DNA of 64,000 nt from Plumapathes pennacea (taxonomy: Eukaryota > Cnidaria > Anthozoa > Antipatharia > Myriopathidae). The position numbers and the translations under genes were made by a program. Where the stretch lies: contig OZ038464.1 in assembly GCA_964036295.1 (NCBI GenBank), positions 5,566,001-5,630,000 of the forward strand. Reading direction: 5' to 3'. Position 1 is the first letter of the stretch. Each line of letters begins with the position of its first letter. This document shows, piece by piece, positions 1,463-49,199 of the stretch. The notes under the pieces are model-generated. The model was given only the letters and a program-made list of their open reading frames with translations. It searched no databases and was not told the origin of the DNA.

Positions 1463-1868
1463 TGGCGATTCAGAATGACTGCTATAGTCCGCTGGGAACT
1501 AATAGTTTTTGCCGCATTTCGATACAGAGCGGCGGAACAGCAGAAGAGGAAACAGAATCTTGTCAATTTTTATTGCTTGTCGAGTTGTGGTAATGCCGCG
1601 ACAATACTACACTTCTGTAATTTCCGAAGGCGATACGGTAATCCTAAAAAAGTAGGCTGACGCAACAACAAAATCAAACAAAGGGATACCCCTTGCCCTA
1701 TCGTTTCAATAACGCAAGTTGCATAAAAAAAATAAATAATAAGATGGACTAAATTTTGTGGGTAAATGAGTTTGCGAGAGTTTTATTACGCTCATCCGCC
1801 AATTTTTCGCGGTGGGGAATGGTACCGAACTTGTAAGGATTGCGGGCTCAGTAGTCAACAAAACCAAA

Positions 1869-1978
1869 ATGGCGGCTGAAGAAGAGAATTGGACTGCTGA
1901 TTTGCTCTGCTGGTTTTCTGGATCACGAGCCAGAGGTCACGACTCGCTGGGTCAGGAATCATCACTTGTCAGACTACA
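1869..1978 (+). other. Candidate first exon, conserved in two copies
   Basis: An ATG in good context (AAAATGG) opens a frame beginning MAAEEENWTADLLCWFSGSR and running to about LGQESSLVR. The paralogous stretch at 25809-25917 keeps the same start and almost the same residues, with clustered differences (RARGHD against RAEYHD). Beyond this the two copies differ by a stretch whose length is not a multiple of three, so either an intron begins or the frame has decayed. No family recognised. Confidence 0.35.
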
Positions 1979-2913
1979 ATCCAATGGAGCACAGGTCGAC
2001 ACATATACATACTCCGAACCAAAGGGCAGTTTAAGCAAGGTATTCACAATCATAGATTATACATGTACTATAATAATCATTTGGATGTGCTATAAAAATC
2101 GTAAAGTAATGCACTTATCAGCAGTCGTCCCGATTGGGTGGGAGGGGGGGGGGGGGATTCCTGGATCAGCGTTTCATCAAAGCAAAAAAAAAAACAAACA
2201 AACAAACGAACTAACTGAAACAAAACGGCGTATTTCAAGCCATCATAATATTGAGATACACCAGTATCTGTTTATTTATTTAGTTTTATTTAAAAAGTTT
2301 CATTTGCATTTGTCACATTTCAAAGTCACTTGTAATATATATAGTCCTTGAAAATGAAGGTAAACATTTAAGTAATTAACAGGAAGGTTTTAATACAATA
2401 TGGCTTAATATGACAGACCTTGGACACGACTATAGTTCAACTTGATCAGTGTTGACTAACACACACTTAACATTATCTTAGTCTTACTACTAATGTTTTG
2501 TGTAATTTTAACCCTTCAACACTTGGGCTCTGCTCAAAATACAAGTAGAGGTAGTTAGAATATTGATCTTCTTTCATCTGTGCAATAGGACATTTCCGAG
2601 ATGCCCATTGCCTCTGCTTCAAACTGAGGCCTATTGTGAAACCTTTCTAGTGAAAATGAGTTTGATTTGCTTGAAAATGAAACTAATTTTCACTGCAAAG
2701 GTTTTGCACTGACCTCGATTTGAAACAGAGGCAACAGGCATCTTGGACATGGACCAGTTATCAATACTTGATTATTCAATTAATTATTGCCAAGTTCTCT
2801 TATCATGTTATATATCTCTCTGGTGTGATATCTGGCAAGAGAGTTAGTTATAATAATAAAAAAGTTAAGTGTTCTGTGCTCCTGGTGGTAGATTAATAGC
2901 ATTTCTCCTTTTG

Positions 2914-3132
2914 TCCTTTCACTCCCAAGCTCAAAATACAGTTTCTCCTGGCCTTAAGAAAAGAAAATGTACCGTAAGAGTGATGTAGTGAGAATTTATA
3001 GTTTAATCAGCTTTCATCTAGGCAAACTATCAAAACCCAAGTTCTGCCCAATACTGGTGATTTATCTCTGGTGAGAAACTGAAGGAGAAGGAGAAATTTT
3101 ATGTTGTAATCAATTTTGGGAGTGAAAAGGTT
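2914..3132 (+). mobile_element. Short inverted-repeat element (MITE), CCTTTCACTCCC family
   Basis: About 220 bp bounded by CCTTTCACTCCCAAG and its imperfect complement GGGAGTGAAAAGG. Internal landmarks are a GTAGTGAGAATT stretch, a TTAATCAG core and a second arm of CTGGTGAGAAACTGAA type. The same element, in either orientation, occurs at about 3238-3446, 5880-6085, 15057-15190, 15615-15790, 26782-26960, 31368-31576, 38358-38555, 40866-41072, 48160-48345 and 61624-61823. Too short to code; a non-autonomous DNA element. Confidence 0.8.
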
Positions 3133-3237
3133 AAATATTGTGAAATGGAGAATTTACATTGATACCACTTCAGTGGCTCAAATTCTCAATCAACCTAACA
3201 CATTTGACCAGGTAAATGTCTTTCCAAATATGATTAT

Positions 3238-3446
3238 AACCCTTTTGCTCCTAAGAATGATTAACTTCAATTTTCTTTTTTCAATCTCCCATCAGAGATA
3301 TATCAAAAAGTATGGAGACTTTGGAATTTGATACCTTGCTCAAGTGACAGCTGATTAAAAGATGAATTCTTTTTTAATCACTAATACATTTTCTTATTTT
3401 ATGTTTGGGAGAATTTGTATTTTGAGCTTGGGATTTAGAGGATTAG
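3238..3446 (-). mobile_element. MITE, CCTTTCACTCCC family, reverse orientation
   Basis: Starts AACCCTTTTGCTCCTAAG, followed by the reverse of the family core, and ends with GGGAGAATTTGTATTTTGAGC and a diverged terminal repeat. It sits only about 100 bp from the forward copy at 2914-3132, so the two could form a hairpin. Confidence 0.7.
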
Positions 3447-4186
3447 GAAAATTCTAGGCAATCTTCTGTATCTTAAAGACGAGAGGTCAAAGTCACTGTA
3501 CCCCCAAAGAGGACTATAATTTGTTTCAATGCAGTGATCAATTCCAGCTTCAACCATTACCCCAATAATTTTTAGTGAGGCTACAAATTCTCCAAACCAA
3601 ATCAAAGAAAATTATAATAAATTTCACACTTTCTCATATTCGTTTGCTGTTTACAATTATTAGAGCGTTTTGCAACAATAGGTCACGTGACCCATAATTA
3701 ACCCCGTTAGTTTTTTTAAGAGCATAAAACAATGTGTTGACTTGCAAAAGTTCAGGTGCATAGCGTTAAAACATCAAATATGGCAGAATTTTGAAATTCA
3801 CAAATATTAAGAAGACTTATATGGGAAAAGTTGTTGAGCAAAGACCTATCTATGAAGTATCGGCAAACCTCATGCTATATTGTTATGAACCTGAAATTTT
3901 GAAGTGTTCATTCATTTTTATGCTCTTTTTATTTGTGGTACTCATACGAATTCTAAGTGGTTAATTTTGGGTCACGTGACCTTTTGTTGCAACGAAGGCG
4001 GCACCCCATCCCTCACAAGTCTGCCCAGCAAATGCAGCAAAAATATGGATAGACAACAACCCTTTGGTCTTGATTATGAATTCGATGATAGTTAATTTAC
4101 GATTCATTTGAGAGCAAGTCTTTCCCCTTCTTGTGTTTTATTTGGGAAAATTAATACCCTTCTTTAAATGACACTGTTGTTTCCAG

Positions 4187-4248
4187 ACGTCCTCTACTGT
4201 GAAATCCTGGGAAGGCTTACACATGGGAAGTCAAGGAGCCGGATTTAT
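4187..4248 (+). other. Candidate 62-nt exon, splice sites kept in both copies
   Basis: A TTTCCAG acceptor precedes and a GTGAGG donor follows an open stretch reading TSSTVKSWEGLHMGSQGAGF. The paralog at 27843-27904 has the same length, its own ...CTCAG acceptor (with a different preceding sequence) and the same GTGAGG donor. Changes are few (WEGLH against WEDLH, QGAGF against QAAGI). Equal length and preserved splice dinucleotides support an exon of an unrecognised plus-strand gene in the duplicated unit. Neighbouring exons are not clear. Confidence 0.4.
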
Positions 4249-4563
4249 GTGAGGTATTTATCTTAAATTTCTGTCTAGTTTCAGAAAACTTTCAGATGCA
4301 TATAATTACGTATTTATATGGCTACAGTGCATTGCACGTTAAATCGAGCCAAGTATGCTCACTGTACTGATGAGATCTGTTTTGATTTGTTCAATAATCT
4401 GCTTTATCTGATAGACGGCTTTGATGAATGTAAAACGGTTTTATAATAATTGTTTTCTTTGTATGTGTCTGGATTGGTTGATCTTCAGTGATAGGCTGTG
4501 AGTTACTTTGTCGTTGTCGAAATATGGCCGTTTAACATGGAGAATGAATACCGTTATTGTTAG

Positions 4564-4730
4564 TGGAGGTTCTCGACTATAGCCGATTCCAGCAGTTAAT
4601 GCAGATAATACGTAGCTTTAACTGGCCGCAAACAGTTGTTGGTCACGAAGAGCATCGACAGTGGGATAACAAACGGGACTATTGTCTGCGCATTCTCAGA
4701 AATTCACTACTCGTTTCACGGACGAAGCCA
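4564..4730 (+). other. Conserved open stretch, possibly an exon
   Basis: A reading with residues LDYSRFQQLMQII followed by FNWPQTV is shared with B (about 28373-28550). C keeps only the last part (from about 39105). It is followed in A and C by a greatly expanded poly-G run. Reading frames diverge after the QTV stretch, so it may be a decayed exon or just conserved repeat DNA. No family recognised. Confidence 0.25.
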
Positions 4731-4736
4731 GGGAGA

Positions 4737-4785
4737 GTGTGTGTGTGTGTGTGTGGAAGGAAGGGGGGGGGGGGGGGGGGGGGGG
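4737..4785. repeat. GT microsatellite and long poly-G tract
   Basis: About nine GT units followed by GGAAGGAA and a run of about 23 G. The orthologous site in C (about 39207-39230) is also a long poly-G run, whereas B has an interrupted GGGAAGGGAAGGAGGGG. Long G runs can form G-quadruplexes and are also prone to assembly error. Confidence 0.95.
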
Positions 4786-5879
4786 TATAGTGACGCTTGG
4801 GCTTGCCCTAAAAAGGCATTCAGCTATCATTTTCAACTCCAAGCAGAGTACGACTTAGCAAAGGAAACTAAACCAAGATCGCACATGGTGAACTAAATTT
4901 TACTGCGATGATATCTCACAGAAATGTTGTTCAAATCGTGAAAGAAACTGGGTTACTGCTTGGGGCAAAAAGTAATCGAGTCTAAGCAGTCACTGTGGCA
5001 ATTATCTTTACTATATGCCAGTTGTAGCATAAATGGAGTGAGAGCGATGAGTTATAGCAATTATAGATACGTACATCAGCCAAGAATACAACAATATGTA
5101 CAGGTCAATAATAAACTAGTAAAGATGGACTAAGTAAACCGCCGATTGTGATGTTGGACGGATTATTAACGTTATCAACGGCGTTTAAAATATATTTATA
5201 AATCCGGCCTTGTTTAGCAGGACCTGTCCTCAAATTGTCATACATCGTCCGGCTATAAACCAGTTTTCGACTTTATCAATTTAATGTTTTGCTAACTTGA
5301 ACGGTTTTCGGATGACTTCCCAAAGTAATTGTGTGGTTGATTTGGTTTGGTCTTTGCCTCGTGTTTGGATTGGTCCAAAAATAGAAGCAAAAACTCGATT
5401 GCGATTTTCAAGTGTCGATGACGTTTTCGGTGTTTGGTTTCTAAACGCAATTTAATTTGGCTTCTTGTTGATTGAAGCTATTTCTTACAGCCTCAATCTG
5501 TGATTTGCGATGTAATTAGTTTGGTTTTGGCTTTACGAAAGTTATCCGAAAACGCCTGTGGCGCGATCAACATACTGCAATAAAATAGTCACATCTCATG
5601 ATCAATTTCAGTAAAACTGCTCAAAATTACTTGTCAATATTTTTTTTCTAAATCTTCTTCCACCTCATACAGTATTACTAACAGTACCTTTGAAATGAGG
5701 TGTTTGTAACATAACTTTCCTTAGCTTCTGTTGTTTAAAAAAGTCGTTCAAAAACCAAAGGACAAAAATGCAACTAGGCACTCAGATATTCTGTGAAACT
5801 TAGAAAAGATAATTTTTGGGCATCTTATATACAACATCCAAAAAAGCGAGGTAACGTGTTATAATGTAGCTGCACCATT

Positions 5880-6085
5880 TGTAACCCTTTCACGCTCAAG
5901 AGTGATCAACTTCAATTTTCTCCTGTCTCACTAGAGATATGTTATGCAGAGAGGAGAACTTGGCTTTCGATAACTTGCCCAAATGACAGCTGATTAAAAC
6001 ATAAATTCTCCCTACGTCACCCATTTCTTTTCTTCTTAAAAGGTTGAGAGGATCTGCATTTTGAGCTTAGGAGTTTAAGGGTTAA
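5880..6085 (-). mobile_element. MITE, CCTTTCACTCCC family
   Basis: Begins AACCCTTTCACGCTCAAG and ends GAGCTTAGGAGTTTAAGGGTTA. It also occurs at the same place in B (31368-31576) and C (40866-41072), so this insertion came before the duplications. Confidence 0.8.
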
Positions 6086-6715
6086 ACAGAACAGCTTCAT
6101 CTGCATGTAGCTTGCTCGTGAATACCATCTCAGTCGGCGAAATAGAACACACGGCTCACATAAATTTTTCGGTCTCGGACAGTTCTCTTACACCACCTAT
6201 TGTCCTTGAGAGGCTGTACTCTTTATTTCATTTGTTCTTACGTTCGCGTATCACTCTCTTCGATTACAACAAGATTACTAAATTTTATGCGCAATGTTTT
6301 CTATTTCCGACTTGAGAAATTACGTGCGGACTGCACTTTTCACGTCTCAACACAAAAGCTTGAATAACTAATTTTGCTCCTTGACAAAGGACAGCATTGA
6401 ATGTCAGGGAAACGCTCAATTTTTTGCCAAAAGTAAAAAATAAGTTTTTCCGCAATAAGCCAACAAATCTCACAGTTGTTACACATCCGCTGACCAGAAA
6501 TCACTGGCAGTTTGCGCGTGCGCGTATAGTGTGATTTATCTGTGGGAACGCGTCAATTTCTAAAGCAAACCAAGGGCCGTTCACTGACAGCGCCATTCAG
6601 TTTACAATGATTAATTCTCAAAAATTCAGGATCTCCTTTGAAGAACTATTGTCAGTTAGATGTGATTCTGAACAACACACTACCATTGTTTAATATTACT
6701 GAGTAATTGACTGTT

Positions 6716-9700
6716 TCACGACCTACCCAAAGGAGTCACATCCTCCCCCAGGAGAACAAAAGGAGCCCAGTAGCGGGGATGGCGAAAGTTCTTGTGGAGT
6801 CTTCTCACGCCATTCATGGCTTCGTTGAGGGCCTCGTTCACACTTTTCCCACAGGACAGACTTCTGTAGAAATAACACATGAAGCCCAACGTTGCGTCAT
6901 CGTCAACCGCCCATAACGTTACGAGAACTGCGCGAGCTCCAGCTCCGAGAAATGCGCGAGCGATGCCGACTACACCCTCTCCGCAGACTTTACCACGGCC
7001 GCTGTAACAGGAACTTAGAACGACTAGCTTTGCCTTTATGCGTTTGCCTTCCAGATCGGAAATTTTCAGCATGATATCTTCGGGATCGTTTTCTGTAGTT
7101 CCGGGTGTACTAGGAGCAAGCAAGATCTCTCCTCTTTCTGCATCTCCGTGAGCTGCAATGTGGATCATATTGGCACTCGCAATGCTTTGTAGAAACCTGT
7201 CTTTGGTTGCGTTTTCTCCTACAAGCGGCTCGACTTTGAGCACATCGCCGACCATTTCGACTTCTTTCCGTGAGCTTGGTAAACTTGGCACTGAAACTAG
7301 CTTACCGTCCTTCTTAATTGAGCCAACCTCTGGGTCTCCTATCACTAAGGCTGTCGACAGGCCTGCTGGTTGTTCTGGGTACCCTCTGATTATCTCTGCT
7401 GTTTTTAGAGACGGAATTAGTCTCACTCGTAAGGATTTTACCATGTACTGCCCGTTTTCATCTACTAAAGCGGCAAATGGAACTAGAGCGAGTGGACCAT
7501 CAGGGACAATAATTGCTTGTGACCCCGCAATATACTGGCGCACAGGATACAGAAGAATTTGGTGCAGCTGTTTCAGCAGACACTTCAGCATTAATTTGTC
7601 AGACTGATCATGGTCGATGATGACCTCGCGTTTCTTTTGATTTTCTGAGGACATTGTTCTGACTAATTTTTGTTCTTGCATAGATGCAGTATGTGAGACC
7701 TTTGACGGACACACTGCTGCTTGTGGGAGAGTCCAGTCGACGGGAATTATGTACCGAGCTGGAGCGGGATTGCGTTTATCTTTAGTTGGTTTTGACGCTT
7801 CTGGGTAGAGAAACGAGAGCGAGCGGTCTTCGCATCTGACTTTGGCAGGTGGCGTCATCAGTTCTAGAGTCTTGTCAACCAGAAACTGTAAACTCTTAGA
7901 GGAATCTTCTTTTATGCGATGCTTTCCGAGTTGTTTCACTTTAATGTCACATTTCCGAAATATAACGTCTCCATTTGGCTGTATAATCCAGGTGCAAATT
8001 TGAGGGTGGAGTAGGAAAAAAAAAAGAACTGTACTATCCAGAGCCTCAACCAATTTCCAGGTTTTATGGAGGTCCGAAATATTGGTTTTAGGGACGGATG
8101 CATAACCAACAAGATTGGCAGTAGACATTAAGTCAGTCAGAGCTATTGCTCGTACTCTTTCAGCATTGATAAGAGCTTCACCTCTCTTGTCTTGAACCAA
8201 AAGATTGCGTACGAGTTTCTTATAACAGTGCATAAATATATCGATAACGGCAACTTTATCTTCATCCCTCGCTGGCACGTTCTTGAACAATTCCTCCAAA
8301 CATGCTACTCCCTTTTTCAAGACACTTTCAGCCTTCCTGTATTGACCGAGTATATTATAACAATCTCCAAGTCTCCTATAAGCTGCTGCTTCGCCATTTT
8401 TGCCTCTAATCTCTTTTGCGATATTCAGGTCCATTTTTAGATATTTAATAGCTTTGTCGTATTGGCAAAGAGAGTAGAAACAACTTCCAAGGTTCCCATA
8501 AGCTGCTGCCTCGTCAAATTTGTCTCCAATCTCTTTTGCGATGTCCAGGTTCATTTCCAGATATTTAATAGCTTTGTCGTACTGGCCGAGAGATTGGAAA
8601 CATATTCCAAGATTCCCACAAGCTACTGCTTTGCCCTTTTTGTCTCCAATCTCTTTTGCGATATTGAGGTTTATTTCCAGATATTTAATACCTTTGTTGT
8701 ACTGGCCGAGATAACTGAAACAAGACCCAAGGTTCCCGTAAGCTGCTGCTTCGCATACTTTGTGTCCAATCTCTTTTGCAATATTTTGGCTCATTTCCAC
8801 ATATTTAATAGCTTTGCTGTACTGGCCGAAAGATATGAAACAAGTTCCAAGGTTCCCATAAGCTACTGCTTCGCCTTCTTTGTGTCCAATCTCTTTTGCG
8901 ACATTCAGGTGGATTTCAAGATATTCAATAGCTTTCTCGTACTGGCCGAGGGAATGGAAACAAGTCCCAAGGTTCCCATAAGCTGCTGCTTCGCCTTCTT
9001 TGTGTCCAATCTCTTTTGCGATATTCAGGTTGATTTCAAGATATTCAATAGCTTTCTCGTACTGGCCGAGGGAATGGAAACAAGTTCCAAGCTTCCCATA
9101 AGCTGTTGCTTCACTTTCTTTGTGTCCAATCTCTTTTGCGATACTTAACCTCATTTCATGATAATCAATTGCTTTGTTGTACTGACCGAGAGATCTAAAA
9201 CAAGTGCCAAGGTTCCCATAAGCTACTGCTTCACCTTCTTTGTGTCCAATCTCTTTTGCAATATTCAGGTGCATCTCCAGACATTTTATAGCTCTGTTGT
9301 ACTGGCCCAGAAAATAGAAAGAAACTCCAAGGTTCCCATAAGCTACTGCTTCGCCTTTTTTGTGTCCAATCTCTTTTCCGATATTCAGGTTCATTTTCTG
9401 ATATTTAATAGCTTTCTCGTACAGGCCTAGTGTATGAAAACAAGTTCCCAGGTTCCCATAAGCTACTGATTCGCTTTCTTTATATCCAATCTCTTTTGCG
9501 AGTTTAAGGTTCATTTCGTGATATTTAATAGCTTTGTTGTACTGACCGAGAGATCTAAAACAAGTGCCAAGGTTCCCATAAGCTACTGCTTCATCTTCTT
9601 TGTGTCCAATCTCTTTTGCAATATTCAGGTGCATTTCCAGACATTTTATAGCTCTGTTGTACTGGCCGAGAAAATAGAAAGAAACTCCAAGGTTTCCATA

Positions 9701-11737
9701 AGCTACTGCTTCTCCTCCTTTGTCTCCAATCTCTTTTGTGATATTCAGGTTCATTTCCTGATATTTAATAGCTTTGTCGTGCTGGTCGAGATATCTGAAG
9801 CAATTGCCAAGGTTTCCATAAGCTGCTGCTTCAGCTTCTTTGTCCCCAATCTCTTTTGTGATATTCAGGTTCATTTCCAGATATTTAATAGCTTTGTCGT
9901 ACTGGCCGATAAAATGAAAACAAGTGCCAAGGTTTCCATAAGCTGTTGCTTCTCCTTTTTTGTGCCCAATCTCTTTTGCGATATTCAGTCGCATTTCTAG
10001 ATATTTGATAGCTTTCTCGTGCTGGCCGAGGGAATGGAAACAAGTTCCAAGGTTACCATAAGCTGCTGCTTCGCCTTCTTTGTGTCCAATCTCTTTTGAG
10101 ATGTTCAAGTTCGTTTCCTGATATTTAATAGCTTTCTCGTACTGGCCGAGCGAATGAAAACATACTCCAAGGTTCCCATAAGCTGCTGCTTCGCCTTCTT
10201 TGTGTCCAATCTCTTTTGAGATGTTCAAGTTCGTTTCCTGATATTTAATAGCTTTCTCGTACTGGCCGAGCGAATGAAAACATACTCCAAGGTTCCCATA
10301 AGCTGCTGCTTCGCCTTCTTTGTGTCCAATTTCTTTTGCGATATTTAAGTTCGTTTCCAGATATTTAATAGCTTTCTCGTACTGGCCGACAGAATGAAAA
10401 CAAGTTCCAAGGTTTCCACAGGCTGCTGCTTCTCCTTTTTTGTGCCCAATCTCTTTTGCGATATTCAGTTGCATTTCTAGATAGTTAATAGCTTTGTCAT
10501 ACTGGCCGATAGCATGAAAACAAGTTCCAAGGTTACCATAAGCTGCTGCTTCTCCTTTTTTGTGTTCAATCTCTTTTGCGATATTCAGTTGCATTTCTAG
10601 ATATTTAATAGCTTTGTCGTACTGGTCGATAGATTTGAAACAAGTTCCAAGGTTCCCATAAGCTGCTGTTTCCCTTTTTTTGTCCCCAATCTCTTTTGCG
10701 AGATTCAGGTTCATTTCCTGATATTTAATAGCTTTGTCGTACTGGCCGAGGGAATGAAAATAAGTTCCAAGGTTCCCACAAGCTGTTGCTTCGCTTTCTT
10801 TGTATCCATTCTCTTTTGCGATGCTGAGCCTTTTTTCCTGACATTTAATAGCTTTGTCGTGCTGGCCGAGATATCTGAAGCAATTGCCAAGGTTCCCATA
10901 CGCTGCGGCTTCAGCTTCTTTGTCCCCAATCTCTTTTGTGATATTCAGGTTCATTTCCAGATATTTAATAGCTTTGTCGTACTGGCCGATAAAATGAAAA
11001 CAAGTGCCAAGGTTTCCATAAGCTGTTGCTTCGCCTTGTTTGTGCCCGATATCTTTTGAGATATTTAAGTTCGTTTCCAGATATTTAATAGCTTTCTCGT
11101 ACTGGCCGAAGGAATGGAAACAAGTTCCAAGGTTACCATAAGCTGCTGCTTCGCCTTCTTTGTGTCCAATCTCTTTTGAGATGTTCAGTTGCATTTCTAG
11201 ATAGTTAATAGCTTTGTCGTACTGGCCGAGAGAATGAAAACATATTCCAAGGTTTCCATAAGCTGATGCTTCGCCTTGTTTGTGACCAATCTCTTTTGAG
11301 ATGTTCAAGTTCATTTCCTGATATTTATTAGCTTTCTCGTACTGGCCGAGGGAATGAAAACATATTCCAAGGTTTCCACAGGCTGTTGCTTCTCCTTTTT
11401 TGTGCCCAATCTCTTTTGCGATGTTCAGTTGCATTTCTAGATATTTGATAGCTTTCTCGTGCTGGCCGAGGGAATGGAAACAAGTTCCAAGGTTCCCATA
11501 AGCTGCTGTTTCGCCTTCTTTGTCTCCTATCTCTTTTACGATAGACAGCCTCTTTTCTTGATATTGAATAGCTTGGTGGTTGTGACCTAGAGATATAAAG
11601 CAAATTGCAGTGTTCCCAAATGCTGTTGTTTCGTCTTGTTTGTGTCCAATCTCTTTTGCGATATTCCGGTTCATTTTCAGGTATTGTATAGCCTTGTCGT
11701 ACTGTCCGAGAGAATTAAAACAAGTGTTAAGATTCTC
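6716..11737 (-). CDS. TPR-CHAT protein, copy A (TTC28-like), intact
   Basis: Tandem TPR array fused to a C-terminal caspase-like CHAT domain. From the ATG at 11674 the frame runs 1,652 residues to a TGA at 6716-6718. Residues 1 to about 1115 are some 27-28 repeats of 40 residues (consensus LGTCFHSLGQYDKAIKYLE), kept at exactly 120 bp with no indel over more than 3 kb. A linker with RGEALINAERVRAIALTDLM (about 1175) follows. The CHAT domain (about 1370-1645) shows VPDGPLALVPFAAL, then HIAAHG (His1509) and VVLSSCYSGRG (Cys1556), the expected catalytic pair. The ATG lies inside a TPR, and the frame stays open up to GAG at 11735-11737. A TAAG|AG conserved in all copies just before it may be a splice acceptor, so an upstream exon is likely but not found. 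CHAT proteins include separase-like and bacterial TPR-CHAT proteases; substrate and cell location here are unknown. Confidence 0.9.
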   Translation of the reverse strand, partial: ENLNTCFNSLGQYDKAIQYLKMNRNIAKEIGHKQDETTAFGNTAICFISLGHNHQAIQYQEKRLSIVKEIGDKEGETAAYGNLGTCFHSLGQHEKAIKYLEMQLNIAKEIGHKKGEATACGNLGICFHSLGQYEKANKYQEMNLNISKEIGHKQGEASAYGNLGICFHSLGQYDKAINYLEMQLNISKEIGHKEGEAAAYGNLGTCFHSFGQYEKAIKYLETNLNISKDIGHKQGEATAYGNLGTCFHFIGQYDKAIKYLEMNLNITKEIGDKEAEAAAYGNLGNCFRYLGQHDKAIKCQEKRLSIAKENGYKESEATACGNLGTYFHSLGQYDKAIKYQEMNLNLAKEIGDKKRETAAYGNLGTCFKSIDQYDKAIKYLEMQLNIAKEIEHKKGEAAAYGNLGTCFHAIGQYDKAINYLEMQLNIAKEIGHKKGEAAACGNLGTCFHSVGQYEKAIKYLETNLNIAKEIGHKEGEAAAYGNLGVCFHSLGQYEKAIKYQETNLNISKEIGHKEGEAAAYGNLGVCFHSLGQYEKAIKYQETNLNISKEIGHKEGEAAAYGNLGTCFHSLGQHEKAIKYLEMRLNIAKEIGHKKGEATAYGNLGTCFHFIGQYDKAIKYLEMNLNITKEIGDKEAEAAAYGNLGNCFRYLDQHDKAIKYQEMNLNITKEIGDKGGEAVAYGNLGVSFYFLGQYNRAIKCLEMHLNIAKEIGHKEDEAVAYGNLGTCFRSLGQYNKAIKYHEMNLKLAKEIGYKESESVAYGNLGTCFHTLGLYEKAIKYQKMNLNIGKEIGHKKGEAVAYGNLGVSFYFLGQYNRAIKCLEMHLNIAKEIGHKEGEAVAYGNLGTCFRSLGQYNKAIDYHEMRLSIAKEIGHKESEATAYGKLGTCFHSLGQYEKAIEYLEINLNIAKEIGHKEGEAAAYGNLGTCFHSLGQYEKAIEYLEIHLNVAKEIGHKEGEAVAYGNLGTCFISFGQYSKAIKYVEMSQNIAKEIGHKVCEAAAYGNLGSCFSYLGQYNKGIKYLEINLNIAKEIGDKKGKAVACGNLGICFQSLGQYDKAIKYLEMNLDIAKEIGDKFDEAAAYGNLGSCFYSLCQYDKAIKYLKMDLNIAKEIRGKNGEAAAYRRLGDCYNILGQYRKAESVLKKGVACLEELFKNVPARDEDKVAVIDIFMHCYKKLVRNLLVQDKRGEALINAERVRAIALTDLMSTANLVGYASVPKTNISDLHKTWKLVEALDSTVLFFFLLHPQICTWIIQPNGDVIFRKCDIKVKQLGKHRIKEDSSKSLQFLVDKTLELMTPPAKVRCEDRSLSFLYPEASKPTKDKRNPAPARYIIPVDWTLPQAAVCPSKVSHTASMQEQKLVRTMSSENQKKREVIIDHDQSDKLMLKCLLKQLHQILLYPVRQYIAGSQAIIVPDGPLALVPFAALVDENGQYMVKSLRVRLIPSLKTAEIIRGYPEQPAGLSTALVIGDPEVGSIKKDGKLVSVPSLPSSRKEVEMVGDVLKVEPLVGENATKDRFLQSIASANMIHIAAHGDAERGEILLAPSTPGTTENDPEDIMLKISDLEGKRIKAKLVVLSSCYSGRGKVCGEGVVGIARAFLGAGARAVLVTLWAVDDDATLGFMCYFYRSLSCGKSVNEALNEAMNGVRRLHKNFRHPRYWAPFVLLGEDVTPLGRS

Positions 11738-12215
11738 TTAATCAGAATATTTTTAGTGACCTGAAAAAGTACAGTTTTTGTTTATATACTCGAACAGCAC
11801 TCTAGCAAAGAGTATATCACTTTCTTCCGTAGGTTCTGTTCAAATTTTGAAGAATACTTAATGTGGATTTAATTTAACATCTAAAAATGTAGGGCCACAT
11901 TTTTAAACAGAGCATAACTTAGACGTAGTTTGTTGTAAAATTTAAGTTTGTACGGACTCCGTAAACCAGGGTTAGCCAAAGGTTAAATTGCAGTGTTTTA
12001 GAACATAGATTAGCTCCGGCTTTTAAAGACCACGTTTAGTCGTGATCCGATTAGCATGCGGTTTTTGTTTTTAAAAACCTTATTTAGGCCAGGACTTTCT
12101 TAACCGCGATCCAAACCTTGTTTAAAAAATCGGCCAGCAGGATTTTCAGACCTATGAAAAGTGTGTATATTGTACTCTTATTCTTTGTTTCATGTCATAT
12201 TTACTTATTATGTTA
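11738..12215. other. 5' flank of TPR-CHAT copy A
   Basis: Closely similar to 35684-36165 and 45486-45970. Contains a conserved CTGAAAAAGTA(A)AGTTTTTG stretch and a TTTATATACT motif about 50 bp upstream of the possible splice acceptor. No open frame. Promoter or intron sequence of the TPR-CHAT unit is likely, but I cannot place a transcription start. Confidence 0.45.
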
Positions 12216-22683: not shown

Positions 22684-22716
<33 letters not shown>

Positions 22717-38357: not shown

Positions 38358-38555
38358 TAACCTTTCCACTCCTGAAAGCGATGAAGCTGAATTTACTTGC
38401 TTTATCAAATAGTTGTCACTTAATAAGGATAATTTGCCGTCTGATAACTTACTGATAATTTGATACAACTATTATAATTCTTCACTACACTCCCATATGA
38501 TTTCTTCTCGATTGGTTGGGAGAATTTGTATTTTAGGAATGGAAGAATTTAAAAG
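38358..38555. mobile_element. MITE, CCTTTCACTCCC family, in copy B
   Basis: Starts AACCTTTCCACTCCTGAAAG and ends near GGGAGAATTTGTATTTTAGG. The counterparts are 15057-15190 (shorter) and 48160-48345. Confidence 0.65.
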
Positions 38556-38804
38556 TAGTTCGGCATTAGACCAGATGACTCCAGCGCTTTTCTATTTTCT
38601 TAAATTTATCAGGCCTTCCATGATTTTACCATTCATTGTTACGAACGAGTGTGACATGGCTATTGCACGTAATTTACAGGTTTATAAGCTAGAAACTGCA
38701 ATTCTGAAAAATGGTGGTTTATTAACGATAAGAATAACACTAGATCTGTAATTCTATTCTTTGTCAGTATATCAGTCCGGAATATTACACAAGACAAGAC
38801 ATAG

Positions 38805-39230: not shown

Positions 39231-40422
39231 ATGGTTATAGTCATGTGAATATTGGAGTTTTAAAGAAAACTTTACTTTATGGGCTAAATGCAATTTGCTC
39301 AATATTAAGGCTCAACTGCTTTATCGCTCTCTTGAATCTGAGGTATAGTGACGCTCAGGTTTGCCCTAAAAAAGACATTCAACGATCATTTTTAATACCA
39401 AGCGGAGTACGAATTATAAAAGGAAACTAAACGAAGTTCGCACATGGTGAACTAAATTTTACTGCGATGATATCTCACAGAATAGTTGTTTTAATCGTGG
39501 AAGAGACTGGGCTACTGCTTGGAGCAAAAAATAATCGAGTTTAAGAAGTCACTATGGCAATACTCCTTTACTATACCAGTTGTAGCATAAATGGAGTAAG
39601 AGCGCTGAGTTATAGCAATTATAGATATGTACATCAGCCAAGAATACAAAAAATATGTACAGGTCAATAATAAACTAGTAAAGATGGACTAAGTAAGCCG
39701 CCGATTGTGATGTTAGACGGATTATTAACGTTATCAACGGCGTTTAACATACGTCTATAAACTCGGCCTTGTTTTGCAGGACCTGAATTTGAAATTGTCA
39801 TAAAGAATCATACATCGTCTTCTATAAAACAAACTCTTAATTTATTGGGCTATAACCAACTTTCGACTTTATCAAATTTAATGTTTTGCTAATAAGAGCG
39901 ACTTTCGGAGGACTTCCCAAGGTAATCGTGTGATTGGTTTGGTTTGGTGTTTGCTTCATGTTTAGATTGGTCCAAAAATAGAAGCAAAATCTCAATTGCG
40001 ATAACTTGGCGATAACGTTTTCTTGCATGCATGATTGGTTTCTTCAAGGTAAAACCACACGCAAGTTTTGGGGCTTCTGATTGATTGAAAGTATTTCTTA
40101 CAGCCTCAGCATGTGATTTGCGGTGTTGTTACTTTGGTTTTGATCATCCGAAAACCTCTGTGACGCGATCAATGCAATTATTACACGAACATCTCATGAT
40201 CAATTTCAGTGAAACTGCTCTTCCTCAACATACAGTATTACTAACAGTACTTTTAAAATGAGGTTTTTGTAACATAACGTTCTTTAGCTTCTGTTGTTTT
40301 AAAATATTGCTCAAAAATAAACATAGGAACGCAACTAGGTAATTAGATATTCTGTTAAAATCAGAACAGAAATTGTTTGAGCATCTTATATACAACACCC
40401 AAAAAAGCGAGGTAACGTGTTA

Positions 40423-40850
40423 TGCACAAGTCAATTGAAACCCCCCCCCCCCCCCCCCCACCTCGGGGAACGGTGGGGACATGGATTTTCTTTGTTGCAA
40501 TAATCGACTATTCCCCCACCCCATGGGACATAATGTGCTGACAAATCCCCCACATTGTGGGGCCAAAAATTGACAAAATTTTACAAAAGAGGCTTTGCAC
40601 GGAAAACTTCTCTCACGAACGAACCGCGTGGTCGAACTGGACGAGGCCGCATTGAATCATATTTTTGGTCAAATCTCCCACCTTGAGCCCCACCGCCGAG
40701 GGGGATTTTCTCTTCATGATTCCCGACCTACCCCTTCGGGCTTAAACACCTTTCATATACGAAAAAATGCCCCACATTGCCCCACCATTCCCCGAAGTTG
40801 GGGGGGGGGGGGGGGGGGGGGGGGGGTGGGGGTTACAATTGACTGGTGCA
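40423..40850. mobile_element. MITE with poly-C/poly-G arms and TTA duplication, copy C only
   Basis: The ends are TGCACAAGTCAATTG and the complement CAATTGACTGGTGCA. Each arm carries a long homopolymer (about 20 C at 40441-40459, about 26 G at 40801-40826) followed by inverted CACCTCGGGGAACGGTGGGG-type sequence. Flanking TTA is at 40420-40422 and 40851-40853. Copy A has the undisturbed site CGTGTTATAATGTAGC. A 3-bp TTA duplication suits a Harbinger-like element. A frame at 40595-40861 inside it is not a recognised protein. Confidence 0.85.
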
Positions 40851-40865
40851 TTATAATGTAGCTAT

Positions 40866-41072
40866 TTGCAACCATTTCACACCCAAGAGTGATGAACTTC
40901 AATTTTCTCCTTCTTCATGTTTTAGCAGATATATGTTATGTATAGTGAGGAGAACTTGGCTTTCAATAACTTGCCCAAATGAACGCTGGTTAAACGATCA
41001 ATTCACTCTACATCACCCATACATTTTCTTCCTAAAAGGTTGAGAGGTTCTGATTGAGCTTAGGAGTTAAAG
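40866..41072 (-). mobile_element. MITE, CCTTTCACTCCC family, in copy C
   Basis: Same insertion as 5880-6085 and 31368-31576. Confidence 0.7.
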
Positions 41073-41703
41073 GGTCTAACAAAACAACTGAATCCGCATG
41101 TAGTTTGTTCGCGTGAATATCATCGCAGTCGGCGAAATATAACACGGCTCGCATTAATTTCTCGGTCTCGGACAGTTCCCTGACACCGTCTATTATCCTT
41201 CAGATGCTGTCTTCCTTCTTTCATTTGTTCTTCTTACGTTCGCGCATCGTTCTTCAATTGCAACAAGATTACTAAATTTTACGCGCAGTGTTTTCCATTT
41301 CCGGCTTGAGAAATTATAGGCGGACTGCGCTTTTCACTAAGAACTAACTTAGCTCCTTGACAAAGGACAGCATTGAATATCAGGGAAAACGCTCAATTTT
41401 TTGCCAAAAGTAAAACAACAAGTTTTTTCCGCAATAAGCCAACAATTCTCACAGAGTTGTTACACATCCGCTGACCAGAAATCACTGGCAGTTTGCGCGT
41501 GCGCGGGTAGTGTGATTTATCTTTGGGAATGCGTCAACTTCTAAAGTAAACCAAGGGCCATTCACTGACAGCGCCATTCAGTTTACAATGATTAATTCTC
41601 AAAAATTCAGGATCTCCTTTGAAGAACTATTGTCAGTCAGATGTGATTCTGGCTTCTGAACAACACACTACCATTGTTTAATATTACTGAGTAATTCACT
41701 GTT

Positions 41704-44700
41704 TCATGACCTACCCAAAGGAGTCACATTCTCCCCCAGGAGAACAAAAGGAGCCCAGTAGCGGGGATGGCGAAAGTTCTTGTGGAGTCTTCTCACGCCA
41801 TTCATGGCTTCGTTGAGGGCCTCGTTCACACTTTTCCCACAGGACAGACTTCTGTAGAAATAACACATGAAGCCCAACGTTGCGTTATCGTCAACCGCCC
41901 ATAACGTTACTAGAACTGCGCGAGCTCCAGCTCCGAGAAATGCACGAGCGATGCCGACTACACCCTCTCCGCAGACTTTACCACGGCCGCTGTAACAGGA
42001 ACTTAGAACGACTAGCTTTGCCTTTATTCGTTTGCCTTCTAGATCGGAAATTTTCAACATGATATCTTCGGGATCGTTTCCATTAGTTCCGGGTGTACTA
42101 GGAGCAAGCAAGATTTCTCCTCTCTCTGCATCTCCGTGAGCTGCAATGTGGATCATGTTGGCACTCTCAACGCTTTGTAGAAACCTGTCTTTGGTCGCTC
42201 TTTCTCCTACAAGTGGCTCGACTTTGAGCACATCGCCGACCATTTCGACTTCTTTCCGTGAGCTTGGTAAACTTGGAACAGGAACTAGCTTACCGTCCTT
42301 CTTAATTGAGCCGACCTCTGGGTCTCCTATCACTAAGGCTGTCGACAGGCCTGCTGGTTGTTCTGGGTACCCTCTGATGACCTCTGCTGTTTTTAAAGAC
42401 GGAATTAGTCTCACTCGTAAGGATTTTACCAAGTACTGTCCGTTTTCGTCCACTAGGGCTGCAAACGGAACTAGAGCGAGTGGACCATCAGGGACGATAA
42501 TTGCTTGTGACTCTGTAATATACTGGCGCACGGGATACAGAAGAATCTGGTACAGCTGTTTTAGCAGACACTTCAGCGTCAATTTGTGATCATGGTCCTC
42601 GCGTTTGTCTTGATTTTCTGAGGACGTTGTTCTGACTATTTCTTGTTCTTGCATAGCTGCAGTATGTGGGACCCTTGGCGGACTTACTGCTGCTTGTGGG
42701 AGAGTCCAGTCGACAGGAATTATGAACCGAGCTGGAGCGGATTTGCGTTTCTTGTTAGTTGGTTTTAACGCTTCTGGGTAAAGAAACGAGAGCGAACGAT
42801 CTTCGCACCTAACTTCAGCACTTGGCGTCATCAGTTCTAGCGTCTTGTTAACCAGAAACTGTAAATCCTTAAGGGAATCTTCTTTTCCGTGCTGTTTTCC
42901 AAATTGTTTGACTTTAATGTCACATGTCCGAAACATTACATCTCCATTTCGCTGTATAATCCAGGTGCAGATTTGAGTGTGGAGTAGAGTAAAGAAAAGG
43001 ACTGTACTATCCAGAGTCTCGACCAATTTTCGTATTTTATGGAGTTCCGAATTATTGCTTGTAGTGACGGATGCATGTCCAGCAAGATTGGCAGTAAACA
43101 TTAGGTCCGTCAGAGCTATTGCTCGCCCCTTTTCTGCAATAACAAGAGCTTCACCTCTTTTATCTTGAACCAAAAGATTGTGTACGAGATCCTCATAAGT
43201 GTCTATAAATAAATCGATAAAGGAAACTTTAACTTCATCCCGCATTGGCACGTTCTCGAACAAATCCTCGAAACATGATACTCCCTTTCTTAAGAAACTT
43301 TCCGCCTTCCTGTATTGACCGAGTACATTATAAAGTTTTCCATAGATCCCACAAACTACTGCTTCGCCCTCTTTGTGTCCAATTCTTTTCAAGATATTCA
43401 GGCTCTTTTCCAGATTTTTAATAGCCTTGTCGTCCTGGCCGATGGAATGGAAACAAGTGCCAAGGTTCCAACAACCTGCTGCTTCGCCTTGTTTGTCTCC
43501 AATGTCTTTTGCGATATTTAGCCTCATTTTGTGATATCTAATAGCTTCGTCGTACTGGCCGAGAGAATGCAAGCAATTGCCAAGTTTCCCATAAGCTAAT
43601 GCTTCAGCTTTTTTGTGTCCAATTTCTTTTGCGATTTTCAGGTTCATTTCCAGATATTTAATAGCTTTGTCGTTCTGGCCGAGGGAATGGACACAAGTTC
43701 CAAGGTTCCCATAAGCTGCTGCTACGCCTTCTTTGTGTCCAATTTCTTTTGCGATTTTCAGGTTCATTTCCTGATATTCAATAGCTTTGTCGTACTGGCC
43801 GAGGGAATGGAAACAAGTGCCCAAGTTCCCATAAGCTGTTGCTTCGCCTGTTTTGTGTCCAGTCTCTTTTGCGATATCCAGGTTCATTTCCTGATATTCA
43901 ATAGCTTTGTCGTACTGGCCGAGGGAATGGAAACAAGTGCCCAGGTTCCCATAAGCTGTTGCTTCGCCTGTTTTGTGTCCAGTTTCTTTTGCGATATTCA
44001 GGTTCATTTCCTGATATTCAATAGCTTTCTCGTATTGTCCGAGAGAATGCAAACAATTACCAAGTTTCCCATAAGCTACTGCTTCGCCTGTTTTGTGTCC
44101 AGTCTCTTTTGCGATATTCAGGTTCATTTCCAGATATTCAATAGCTTTCTCGTATTGTCCGAGAGAATGCAAACAATTACTAAGTTTCCCATAAGCTACT
44201 GCTTCTGACTTTTTGTGTCCAGTTTCTTTGGCAATATTCAGGTTCATTTCCAGATATTCAATAGCTTTCTTGTATTGTCCGAGAGAATGCAAACAATTGC
44301 CAAGTTTCCCATAAGCTACTGCTTCGCCTGTTTTGTGTCCAGTCTCTTTTGCGATATTCAGGTTCATTTCCTGATATTTAATAGCTTCCTTGTATTGTCC
44401 AAGAGAATGGAAACAATCGCCAATTTTCCCATAAGCTACTGCTTCTGACTTTTTGTGTCCAATTTCTTTTGCGATATTCACGTTCATTCCCAGATATTTA
44501 ATAGCTGTCTCGTATTGTCCGAGAGAATGGAAACAATCGCCAAGTTTCCCATAAGCTACTGCTTCTGCTTTTTTGTGTCCAATTTCTTTTGCGATATTCA
44601 GGTTCATTTCCTGATATTTAATAGCTTTGTCGTACTGGCAAAGGGAATGGAAACAAGTCCCAAGGTTCCCATAAGCTGCTGCTACGCCTTCGTTGTGTCC

Positions 44701-45482
44701 AATCTCTTTTGCGATATCCACGCTCATTTCCTGATATTTAATAGCTTTGTTGTACTGGCCGAGGGAATCGAAACAAATTCCTAGGCTCGCACAAGCTGCT
44801 GCTTCGCCTTCTTTGTGTCCAATTTCTTTTGCGATATTCAGTTTCATTTCCTGATATTTAATAGCTTTGTCGTACTGGCCAATTGAATGGAAATAAGTCC
44901 CAATGTTCCCAAAAACTACTGCTAGTACGCCTTCTTTGTGTCCAATCTCTTTTGCGATATCCATGCTCATTTTCACATATTTAATTGCTTTCTCGTACTG
45001 GCCGAGATTATGGAAACAAATTCCTAAGCTCGCACAAGCTGCTGCTTCGCCTTCTGTGTGTCCAATTTCTTTTGCGATATCCAGGCTCATTTCCTGATAT
45101 TTAATAGCTTTGTCGTACTGGCCGTGAGGTTTAACTAACAAGAGACAATGTTTTGCGATATTTAGGCACATTTTCAGATATTTAATAGCTTTCTTGTACT
45201 GTCCGAGAGAACTGAAACAAGTGCCCAAGTTTCCATAAGCTTTTACTTCGCCTTCTTTGTGTCCAACGTCTTCTGCGGTTATCAGATTCATTTTCAGATA
45301 TTTAATAGCTTGGTCGTACTGGCCGAGAGATCTAAAACAAGTGCGCAGGTTCTCATAAGCTGCTGCGTTGCCCTTTTTCTTTTTTTGTCTCCAATCTGTT
45401 TTACGATATTCCGGTTTATTTCCAGGTGTTTTATAGCTTCGTCGTACTGGCCAAGAGATTTGAAACAAGTTGCAAGGTTCTC
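41704..45482 (-). CDS. TPR-CHAT protein, copy C (TTC28-like)
   Basis: Open over about 1,254 codons to a TGA at 41704-41706. It has about 18 TPR units of 40 residues, one shortened in frame near 45120-45190 (IAKHCLLLVKPHGQYDKA), then the RGEALVIAEKGRAIALTDLM linker and a complete CHAT domain with HIAAHG (His1111) and LSSCYSGRG (Cys1158), numbered from the first open codon. That codon (45468) is TTG, not ATG. The first repeat (CFKSLGQYDEAIKHL) lies in another frame because of an altered A/G run (45370-45382). Internal ATGs occur in the repeats (KMNL). As in A, a TAAG|AG stands before the first repeat at about 45482. Probably a functional protease with a 10-repeat-shorter array than A if an upstream exon or internal start is used. 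Nearly identical to B outside the B frameshift. Confidence 0.82.
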
Positions 45483-46619
45483 TTAAACGGGATATTTGTA
45501 ATGACCTGAAAAGGTAAAGTTTTGGTTTATATACTAGAAGAGCACTTTAGCAAAGAGTAGATCACATTTTCTTCGGTAGAGTCTGTTCAAATTTGGAAGA
45601 TTATTCTAATGTGAATTTCAGGTCAACTTTTAAACATGTAGGGCCATTTTAGTTTTAAACAGAGCATAACTTATATCTAGTTTGTCCATTAATTGAAGTT
45701 TGTACGGACTTCGTTAACCAGGGTTACCCAAAGGTTAAATTGCAGTGTTTTAGAACATGGATTAGCTCCGGTTGTAAAAGACCACGTTTAGTCGTGATCC
45801 GACTAGCATGCAGCTTTTGTTTAAACCTTATTTAGATCAGGACTTTCTTAATCGCGGTCCAAACCTTGTTTAAGCGACAACAAATTGGCCAGCAGGATTT
45901 TAAGACCTATGAAAAGTTTGTATATTGTACTCTTATTCTTTGTTTGATGTCATATTTAATCATTAACTTAGTTTTACATTTGATTGAATCATCGTGATAT
46001 TTATAACGAGTTCATTGCCAGAACATTCTTTTGTCGATAAAATGTTTCAATATAACACGAACTACTGCGTTGATCAAAATCGAAATAGTTCCAAACCTGA
46101 TCAATAAAGTCCCAATGTCATAAAATATATCAAATTTGACATATCTGTTATACCGCATAGATGACAAAAACTAATATTTCACAAGAATATCTTCACCATA
46201 TTTGGTTCTGCGCAAATCTATGCCGATAAATTTAGAAGTGAAAAATGCCTGCACGAAAAGTATCTTGGTTTCACAAAAGAGAAAGCTCACTTTGTTTATA
46301 ACTCAGGGAGTTCACATGTGTTTGTGTCAGTTGTTTCCTTTTTATCTTTGCAGAAACATCAACTGGTATATACAGATTTTTACTTACCATCATCTTACTT
46401 GCATCTTACCTTGCATAAATCTTTCCTTTGTTTTCTCCAGCTGCAGAATGATATTTTCGGTGACACGCTATAATGTCGATTAGCTGGTTCTGTTTGAAGA
46501 TAAGTTTAAAAATTGCTTTGGAAAAGAGATACATGGCAGTGATCGACGACCTGGATCATGCTTACGCGATTTCCACTTAATGCTTTGCGCGCTATCAAGT
46601 GGGTGAATTAACTGATTAT
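45483..46619. other. 5' flank of TPR-CHAT copy C
   Basis: Nearly identical to 35684-36816. No gene supported; the frame at 46202-46483 is shared with B only because of the recent duplication and is broken in A. Confidence 0.5.
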
Positions 46620-46985
46620 TCACAATAACTCAAAACTTGTCATGGTTGGTCCAAGCTCACAGAAAGTGTACATTCGCCTTCCCACTATTTTCTTTGTAAA
46701 AATCCCAGTCTTTGCAACCAGGATCTCGGTAAACCGGGCTGGCTCGTTGCTCATGCAAACACCGGATGAAAATTTGGCAGCATTTTGCCTCGTCTGCTGA
46801 ATTTTCCACATAAGAAGTATACCATTTAGCTGCAGCAGTAAAGCTACAACAGTTGACAAAGCTACGATCATAGGCACGATGGAATAATATTTACGTGGCG
46901 CCCTTTTGTTCTTCTTGAAAACAAGCTGAGAATCGCGGACGAAACTACTAAAACGCGAATTAAATTGAAGCATTGGAAATAGCAT
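46620..46985 (-). pseudogene. Decayed membrane-anchor exon, copy C
   Basis: Same as the copy-B frame apart from one residue (NEPARF against NEPAWF). The same lost ATG and 16-nt deletion relative to A show these changes came before the B/C split. Confidence 0.5.
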
Positions 46986-47218
46986 ATGAGAGAGAAATAA
47001 TGTGACTACACAACGAAAGGAGCAATTATTTGATCACGTGCAAGTTGGTACAACTGTTCTTGGAAAAGAAAAAGTATTTTCTTAATGTGCAAAATAATTA
47101 AAAGAAAAGCACTAAAAGAAAACTTAAACTCAAAGATGAAAAAATAATTACAAATCCCGATCGCACCATGGACGAGTTGCACTCTTTTTATTTAGACCTG
47201 TTTAGTGAAATGAATTAA
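46933..47218 (+). mobile_element. LINE ORF2 fragment, copy C
   Basis: As in B, ending MDELHSFYLDLFSE; a base change gives CAAAATAATTAAAAG in the YFLN stretch, so it is further broken. Confidence 0.7.
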
Positions 47219-49199
47219 GAATAGGTAAAGGTTTACGGGTATATTCAAAGCATTCACGGCTATTCACTCCAGGCAATTCATTTCTTGTGCACAATTCAAA
47301 ACAGTATGTACACATGTATTTTGTGTAGACCGATTTATCGAGGCACAAGAGTTTTGTGTACGTATTACTCTGTTGAGACTCTTTTGAGCGAAACTCCGAC
47401 CATGCCTATTTTTGCGAGAGTGTTCTTCCTTGCTGTGAAAGCATTAAGGAAATGTCGTGGGAGTTTTCGCTGTTTTCAGTTTCGAACAGCCCGTAGACCC
47501 AGTACGAACTCAAAACATTCAAGCTGAGTGACTGTACTCGGTGGCTTTAAGCCAACTGACCCGATGTAGTATTCAAAATAGCCGAGGGGGGTCGATGCAG
47601 TACGGCCGCATACAGCAAGCGATTACGGCTTTAGAATTTGAAATGTATTTGAGCGTGAAAATACAGCAACGATATTGTATTAATGCGTATATATCTAGCG
47701 CGAGTGGGCAGCATTTAACTTCCGTTGCGGAACTGCTAGTTTATAGTGATCCTTGTTGTCACGCACATGACAGAGCAAGGCCATAGTCTTAATCCGTGAA
47801 ATCAAGTACAACCAACACTGACTTCTTTTAACGAGGTTTACCTTTTTTCCAACAAGGAATCCAACTCCGTCCGCAATCAAATAACTTCGGAAAACTGTGA
47901 TAACGTTTTATATACACATGAACTTTTAAAATATCTTATTGCACTTTCTGTCAGTATTGCCCAAATTAAGTCGGGTGCGGCCCCACTGGTCAGTTCTAAG
48001 TCAATACCTTTTGTCATAATGATTCATCAGGTCACTCGCGCATCAAAAACTGAAACGTTCATGGACCATTGCACTTTTTTTAGAATTTCCTGGTGGTCTG
48101 AGAGGCAATGTTACAAATAATCAGTAGAAAAAAAATTGCCCAAAAAGATGTCTGATCTTTAACCCTTCCACTCCTGAAAGCGATGAAGCTGAATTTACTT
48201 GCTTTATCAAATAGTTGTCACTCAGTAAGGATAATTTGCCATCTGATAACTTACTGATAATTTGATACAACTATCAGAATCCCTCACTACACTCCCATAC
48301 AATTTCTTCTCGATTGGTTGGGAGAATTTGTATTTTAGGTGTGAAAGAATCAAGTAGTTCGGCGTTAGACCAGATGACCTCAGCGATTTCTTATTTTCCT
48401 AAAATTATCAGGTGTTTTATGATTTTACCATTCATTGTTACGAACGCGTGTGGCATGACTATTCCACGTAATTTACAGGGTCATAAGCTAGAAACTGTAA
48501 TTTTGAGAAATGGGGGTTTATTAGCGATAAAAATAACACTAGATCTGTAATTTTATTCCTTTGTCAGTATATCAGTCCGGAATATTATACGAGACAAGAC
48601 ATACTCTTAGTCAATTAACGCTAGATTTGGAAACTTCACTGTTTCGAGATTGACGTGGCTATTCCGTGTAATTTACGGCGTCATAAACTAGAAACTGCAA
48701 TTTTGAAAAATGGGGTTTCCCAATACGGCTGTTCAGCGATAAAGATAACGAAGACCTGTAATTATATTCTTTGTGGTATTTCAATCTTGTTAAATCACTT
48801 TAAAATGGGTGTTTGAAGGTTTTGTTTCGTCTCAAATGTTATTTAAACATTAAAATTCCGGAATTAGTATCGTTAGACTTTGAAGTGGCACTGAAACGAA
48901 AACTCAAGGTGGCCCTTCATTTCTTAAAATATTTTTTCAGTCTTAGAAGAGCATTAATAAAAAAAATGAAAATGCTCTATAGCTACCGAGAAGTTAGTCT
49001 TGACTTATAACGTATTTTGTACAAAATGCGACAATTTCCGAAATTCTGAGCCTGCGAAATACCAGCGGTTGCTCATGCTAGTGACTCCACATGGCAGATA
49101 CAAAAGTATGAACTGATAAAGTGTAACAAAGAAAGTTGGCTAGATTTGCTTCACTAAAGCTTCGCTGTCGATTCGCTGCAAAAATTACCCGGCAAAAAT

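What the first reader, a model, noticed from the sequence alone, without database searches (positions are those of the whole stretch)
1567..49010. Tandem triplication of a TPR-CHAT protease unit
Three same-orientation copies of one unit each carry a TPR-array/CHAT gene. Two copies keep the His/Cys pair, and the arrays differ in length (about 28, 16 and 18 repeats). CHAT is a caspase-like protease fold (seen directly through HIAAHG and SSCYSGRG), and TPR-CHAT proteins are protease effectors in bacterial defence. A cluster in active birth, array-length change and decay is the pattern expected of a fast-evolving immune or cell-death family. The role is inference.
Basis: partly seen in the sequence, partly recalled or inferred. 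Interest (0 to 1): 0.75.

Follow-up and report, generated by a model that had tools for sequence, protein, structure and literature searches.

The report
Black-coral TPR–protease gene cluster
Three side-by-side copies of a gene, two intact and one broken, belong to a very large black-coral gene family that joins a caspase-like protease to a long repeat array, and in several related copies the array's binding groove changes under selection while the protease does not, which is what a recognition receptor would look like.

The parts
1565..16275 (-). unit A (span of the pieces homologous to B/C; interrupted)
   Evidence: self-blastn
25525..38803 (-). unit B
   Evidence: self-blastn
39286..48917 (-). 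unit C
   Evidence: self-blastn
6716..11737 (-). copy A: uninterrupted TPR-CHAT frame, 1673 aa stop to stop (1652 aa from first ATG)
8359..11725 (-). copy A TPR array, 28 units of 120 bp
6743..7579 (-). copy A CHAT domain, His motif 7142-7165, Cys motif 6999-7027
32578..35607 (-). copy B: TPR array and first half of CHAT; frame breaks at about 32675
33876..35665 (-). copy B TPR array, 14 units plus a degenerate one
32228..32689 (-). copy B: second half of CHAT in another frame, with His and Cys motifs
   Evidence: Cys motif 32511-32539
41704..45546 (-). copy C: uninterrupted TPR-CHAT frame, 1280 aa stop to stop
43347..45329 (-). copy C TPR array, 16 units (one damaged) plus a degenerate one
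41731..42567 (-). copy C CHAT domain, His motif 42130-42153, Cys motif 41987-42015
6300..7450 (-). stretch of copy A unusually similar to B and C (possible gene-conversion tract: C-terminal CHAT plus near 3' flank)
   Evidence: suggestive only
12670..14707 (-). 5' region of unit A conserved with 36164-38168 (B) and 45967-47959 (C); possible promoter/5' exons, unresolved

Best explanation
Three tandem copies, two intact and one broken, of a TPR-CHAT (TTC28-like) gene in a black coral, part of a family of about 250 loci or more. SHOWN: one uninterrupted frame encodes a long TPR array (predicted LGN-type superhelix) followed by a single CHAT domain (predicted separase/Craspase-like fold); the catalytic His and Cys are nearly always kept; arrays differ by whole 120-bp units; in three of five independent duplicate pairs groove-facing array residues change faster than neutral while CHAT is held constant. 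INFERRED: the array is the sensor, binding extended peptide-like ligands along its concave groove; binding changes the last repeats and switches on the CHAT protease, much as target RNA acts through the last TPR of Csx29; the protease then cleaves a downstream protein to signal damage or death. A gasdermin, a caspase-like zymogen or another regulator are possible substrates. The diversifying ligands are most likely non-self (microbial) or allogeneic proteins.
Against: Window pair B/C: groove 3 N: 1 S, dN/dS 0.47; L046/L047 0.95 (0.79 at fixed offset), also not significant. Inside array A groove dN/dS is 0.55-0.67 (rest 0.23-0.33), and the five positions picked out elsewhere give 0.70 there. 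Groove positions 5, 9 and 13 are not individually above neutral. In pair L045/L011 the non-groove positions are also at 1.00. Counting method only, no likelihood model. No expression, ligand, substrate or activity data. One gasdermin locus was found, on another contig. The N-terminus/5' exons are unresolved.
Confidence: 0.55

Rival explanations
1. Scaffold expansion without recognition: copies of a TTC28-like cell-division or trafficking scaffold that multiplied by unequal crossing-over, the CHAT kept for structure and the arrays drifting.
For: Human TTC28 is tied to mitosis/cytokinesis (as cited in PMC12314368 and PMC9145168, passages). Tandem duplication by NAHR is proposed for stony corals. 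Window arrays themselves show no groove dN/dS clearly above 1.
Against: Groove dN/dS above 1 in three of five independent pairs with CHAT at 0.20; near-complete retention of both catalytic residues, with both synonymous codons seen in the listings.
Confidence: 0.2
2. The groove is a substrate-docking site: each copy is a protease for a different endogenous substrate, so diversification tracks substrates, not foreign ligands.
For: LGN-type superhelices hold extended peptides of host proteins (titles); Csx29 cleaves a specific system protein (PMC10028731 passages).
Against: Groove residues differ widely even between duplicates about 93% identical, more than endogenous substrates would seem to need; not a decisive objection.
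Confidence: 0.15
3. Allorecognition: the arrays read polymorphic self/non-self proteins at colony contact and trigger rejection through the protease.
For: Colonial sessile habit (recalled); fungal gasdermins are discussed under allorecognition and a TPR-bearing CHAT protease activates one of them (PMC12881547 passages). The same selection pattern would be expected.
Against: Nothing here separates it from antimicrobial sensing; no polymorphism data.
Confidence: 0.1
4. Symbiosis or bleaching-specific expansion of stony corals.
For: A role in apoptotic signalling and/or bleaching is suggested for Pocillopora (PMC6208414 passage).
Against: This genome is a black coral; black corals mostly lack algal symbionts (recalled, not from a call), yet the family is about as large.
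Confidence: 0.03

Closest known systems
TPR-CHAT domain-containing proteins of stony corals (TTC28-like; PMC12314368, PMC9145168, PMC6208414; passages read)
   Same: Long N-terminal TPR stretch, single C-terminal CHAT, up to hundreds of copies, tandem clusters, variable array length.
   Different: Here a black coral; 34 of 37 own CHATs fall outside the group with the 11 Porites/Oculina/Stylophora rows sampled. A catalytic-residue census and groove-specific selection were not in the passages read; PMC12314368 has 0 occurrences of 'gene conversion' and 'protease'. PMC9145168 ran a positive-selection scan whose table I did not see.
Human TTC28/TPRBK
   Same: Same domain architecture (per PMC12314368).
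   Different: Most animals other than anthozoans have 1 or 2 copies (per PMC12314368); cell-division role; not compared residue by residue here.
Csx29 / TPR-CHAT of type III-E CRISPR (Craspase)
   Different: Activated by Cas7-11 and target RNA; eight repeats; 13-16% identity.
Separase
   Different: Single-copy cohesin protease without a 40-residue consensus array (recalled).
Fungal TPR-bearing CHAT protease with gasdermin (reviewed in PMC12881547, passages)
   Same: TPR-type repeats fused to CHAT.
   Different: Fungal pair is a two-gene cluster; no gasdermin near the window.
LGN/GPSM2 TPR superhelix
   Same: 40-residue TPR type, superhelix (TM up to 0.82), about 30% identity.
   Different: LGN has far fewer TPRs and GoLoco motifs, and no CHAT (recalled).

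Membership tests
TPR-CHAT (TTC28-like) proteins | multiple N-terminal TPRs followed by one C-terminal CHAT | tested here: met
   for A and C; B has the order but a broken CHAT frame
TPR-CHAT (TTC28-like) proteins | CHAT match above Pfam cut-off (24 bits) | tested here: met
   A 194, C 197, B 57 bits
TPR-CHAT (TTC28-like) proteins | tandem, multi-copy family in an anthozoan | tested here: met
CHAT / clan CD cysteine protease (separase-like) | separase/caspase-like fold | tested here: met
   predicted model:
CHAT / clan CD cysteine protease (separase-like) | catalytic His-Gly and Cys in frame | tested here: met
   A and C in frame; B not
CHAT / clan CD cysteine protease (separase-like) | proteolytic activity | not testable with these tools
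   needs protein
immune receptor / defence effector | diversifying selection on the recognition surface | tested here: inconclusive
   met in groups L013/14/15, L011/16/44/45 and L048/49; not significant in B/C, L046/47 or within array A
immune receptor / defence effector | induction or requirement during infection | not testable with these tools
   no transcripts or animals
gasdermin-activating CHAT system | gasdermin gene beside the protease gene | tested here: not met
   the only Gasdermin matches are two exons at C9:3.748-3.749 Mb; the window is on C3, and the nearest CHAT listed on C9 is about 0.74 Mb away

The most novel reading that the evidence does not exclude
Anthozoan TPR-CHAT proteins are a modular, germline-shuffled recognition repertoire: on an otherwise near-constant 40-residue repeat, a few groove residues (TPR 2 and 12, plus 24 and 27) are swapped repeat by repeat under positive selection, whole repeats are duplicated and reordered, and each array thus spells a different groove that reads an extended peptide or polymer and switches on one common separase-like protease. 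It would be an animal receptor family built on repeat arrays with a built-in protease, evolved on a large scale in black corals as well as stony corals.
Probability: 0.25. Interest if true: 0.85.

Novelty: new member of a known kind. Interest (0 to 1): 0.62.

Why it matters
Corals keep up to hundreds of TPR-CHAT genes of unknown use. Groove-specific positive selection with a constant catalytic domain gives a concrete, testable reason: a sensor repertoire wired to a protease. Finding a similar-sized, largely separate expansion in a black coral argues that it is not tied to stony corals or their algae.

Tried and rejected
Retroposition as the cause of dispersed copies: homology between L013, L014 and L015 on three contigs ends shortly after the CHAT stop, but several copies show splice-donor-like sequence there and I saw no clear poly-A tail in the 260 bases read, so I did not claim it. 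A TM-type 5' exon (137-aa frame at 36817-37230 and 46620-47033): broken in A, one partial match elsewhere in the genome, no Pfam match (copy B's frame); left open. Splice acceptor near 11760: the array frame is closed just upstream in A and C; start codon not assigned. Gene conversion of CHAT: dS of A against C falls from 0.26 (linker) to 0.09 (CHAT end), A against B to 0.066 (Fisher p 0.046 and 0.006), and the near 3' flank has fewer A-only changes than the far flank (14/397 against 45/498, p 0.001), but the test of A-only against B/C-only changes inside and outside the tract is not significant (p 0.48) and the permutation test (0 of 5000) picked a poorly aligned end; kept as suggestive. A repeat code with coupled residues: mutual information inside units is mostly near shuffled values; 9-12, 24-27, 27-2 and 27-u34 exceed the highest of 300 shuffles. 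Generic TPRs are also variable at groove positions (PMC1261162), so entropy alone was not used as proof; dN/dS in recent pairs was. Bacterial-type promoter scan and Rfam (no match) gave nothing useful. My note says 31 of 34 own CHATs in one clade; recounted it is 34 of 37.
Full report
OBSERVATION. Self-comparison of the window gives three same-orientation units, A 1565-16275, B 25525-38803 and C 39286-48917. Each has a minus-strand frame with TPRs then CHAT. A is open over 1673 codons (28 units of 40 aa), C over 1280 (16 units, one damaged); each array ends in one more degenerate unit. B's frame stops halfway into CHAT, and the rest, with HIAAHG and SSCYSGRG, lies in a second frame; the nucleotide alignment shows one base missing just before the catalytic His.

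WHAT GENOME. The window is 64 kb of a 290-Mb, 24-contig animal genome. The mitochondrial contig C24 has a cox1 intron whose homing endonuclease is 93% identical over 94% of its length to Tylopathes; the other five matches (42-58%) are Antipathidae, Stichopathes (twice), Phanopathes and Leiopathes. NCBI places Tylopathes in Antipatharia; that the other genera are black corals is recalled. So this is a black coral, close to Tylopathes; the species was not identified.

FAMILY SIZE AND CATALYTIC RESIDUES. The Pfam CHAT search scored 135 of 317 candidates, all 135 above cut-off; this favours well-kept copies. A check not tied to the CHAT score, though tied to the residues beside the catalytic ones, is by DNA pattern: 254 sites have the motif around the Cys, any codon allowed (backward control 1), of which 248 have Cys (control 0); 224 have the motif around the His (control 1), of which 217 have His (control 0). 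Six of the seven non-His sites are in the listing; the four on C1-C3 have no Cys motif beside them, so they may be chance matches. Both synonymous codons of each residue occur in the listings, as expected if the residues are held by selection. In 35 copies sampled outside the window (15 locus copies plus 20 taken down the ranked list) all keep both. In an alignment of 60 rows (window C and 59 database proteins) His is kept in 60 and Cys in 59.

ARRAY EVOLUTION. B's 14 units match C's units 3-16 one to one at 94-100% identity, while 24 of 28 A units match another A unit best (identical pair A13/A14; A07/A16 0.98; A18/A21 0.97): A's array was largely rewritten after the A/BC split, or B/C's was. 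In 19 other loci with arrays all unit spacings are 120 bp except three of 240 bp (the four commonest spacings per locus were printed).

SELECTION ON THE GROOVE. In TPRs in general positions 2, 5, 9, 12, 13, 33 and 34 are the most variable and lie on the concave face (PMC1261162, passages). Over 285 units from 16 arrays the most variable positions were TPR 27, 12, 2, u34 and 9; in 856 units of 119 of 120 database proteins they were TPR 12, 2, u34, 9 and 5, rank correlation 0.75. The four in helix A share one face of an ideal helix. To separate selection from slack I counted synonymous and non-synonymous changes between aligned units of recent duplicates (NG86). Five independent pairs (L013/L014, L044/L045, L048/L049, L046/L047, window B/C; 108 units): groove positions 2,5,9,12,13 N=167, S=17, dN/dS 2.69 with pooled dS (bootstrap 2.17-3.35); other 35 positions 0.60 (0.49-0.73); TPR 12, 2, 27, 24 and u32 are individually above neutral after Bonferroni, positions 5, 9, 13 are not. 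Single pairs: L013/L014 3.49 (2.42-5.20), L044/L045 4.30 (3.06-6.17), L048/L049 1.94 (1.05-3.19); six overlapping pairs 2.23-6.61, in the highest of which (L045/L011) the rest is also at 1.00. Negative: L046/L047 0.95 and B/C 0.47, few changes each. CHAT of the four non-window pairs: 0.20, linker 0.57. Every unit at one fixed offset, no identity filter: 2.40 against 0.59. Inside array A: groove 0.67 (0.55 with nearest neighbours and six positions), rest 0.23; A against nearest L010 units 1.18 and 0.28. So the pattern is strong in other branches of the family and only hinted at in the window. L010-L016 were the best matches to protein A; I picked L044-L049 as cluster members with long frames. 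Left out of the pair tests: L001-L008 (5-6 units each in six, none in L002 and L003 at the score used) and L010 and L012, for which no near-identical partner was fetched.

RELATION TO KNOWN. Stony corals have 6 to 362 TPR-CHAT genes, Nematostella 15, with TPR stretches of 31-3,832 aa in Acropora, and expansion is placed after the split from Actiniaria (PMC12314368, passages). In a tree of 85 CHAT rows (37 own, 11 named stony coral, 37 unnamed), 34 own rows fall with 26 unnamed rows in a clade of 60 (support 97/93); the 11 Porites, Oculina and Stylophora rows, eight unnamed rows and own L002, L003 and L038 form the other group (100/100); L038 sits on a long branch and its place is unsure. The root is the midpoint, and the database rows were picked by similarity to copy C. 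This points to a mostly separate expansion in black corals. My paper searches (capped listings of 6-20 papers each) showed no paper on TPR-CHAT in black corals or on groove selection or catalytic residues in coral TPR-CHAT; PMC9145168 has a positive-selection scan whose table I did not see; preprints and most subscription journals are not held.

MECHANISM. Best reading: an LGN-like superhelix senses extended ligands and allosterically licenses a separase-like protease; sequence is shown, fold predicted, ligand, activation and substrate inferred. One gasdermin locus was found, on another contig, a possible but unproven substrate.

VERDICT. A confirmed, small, partly decaying cluster of a known family, in an unexpected lineage, with new evidence elsewhere in the same genome for a diversifying sensor on a constant protease.

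Noticed in passing
window 59325-60848 (+): Single long frame matching VCIP135_N and OTU: N-terminal part of a VCPIP1-type deubiquitinase, next to the cluster.
   Followed up: partly
window 23952-24602 (-): Reverse transcriptase fragment (RVT_1, 42 bits, part of the profile) between units A and B.
   Followed up: no
window 51-949: Tandem array, period 102 bp, 8.8 copies, just before unit A.
   Followed up: no
window 36817-37230 and 46620-47033 (-): Conserved 137-aa frame with a hydrophobic stretch upstream of B and C, broken in A; one partial match at C1:16510629.
   Followed up: partly
L013 (C4), L014 (C5), L015 (C1): TPR-CHAT copies on three different contigs 93-94% identical over 5.6 kb, ending near a (TCAAG)n tract soon after the stop: dispersed, not only tandem, duplication.
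   Followed up: partly
L050 (C24 mitochondrial contig): cox1 intron homing endonuclease is 93% identical to Tylopathes but only 42-58% to the other five matches found.
   Followed up: no
window 51595-51809: Perfect 83-bp tandem repeat, 2.6 copies.
   Followed up: no
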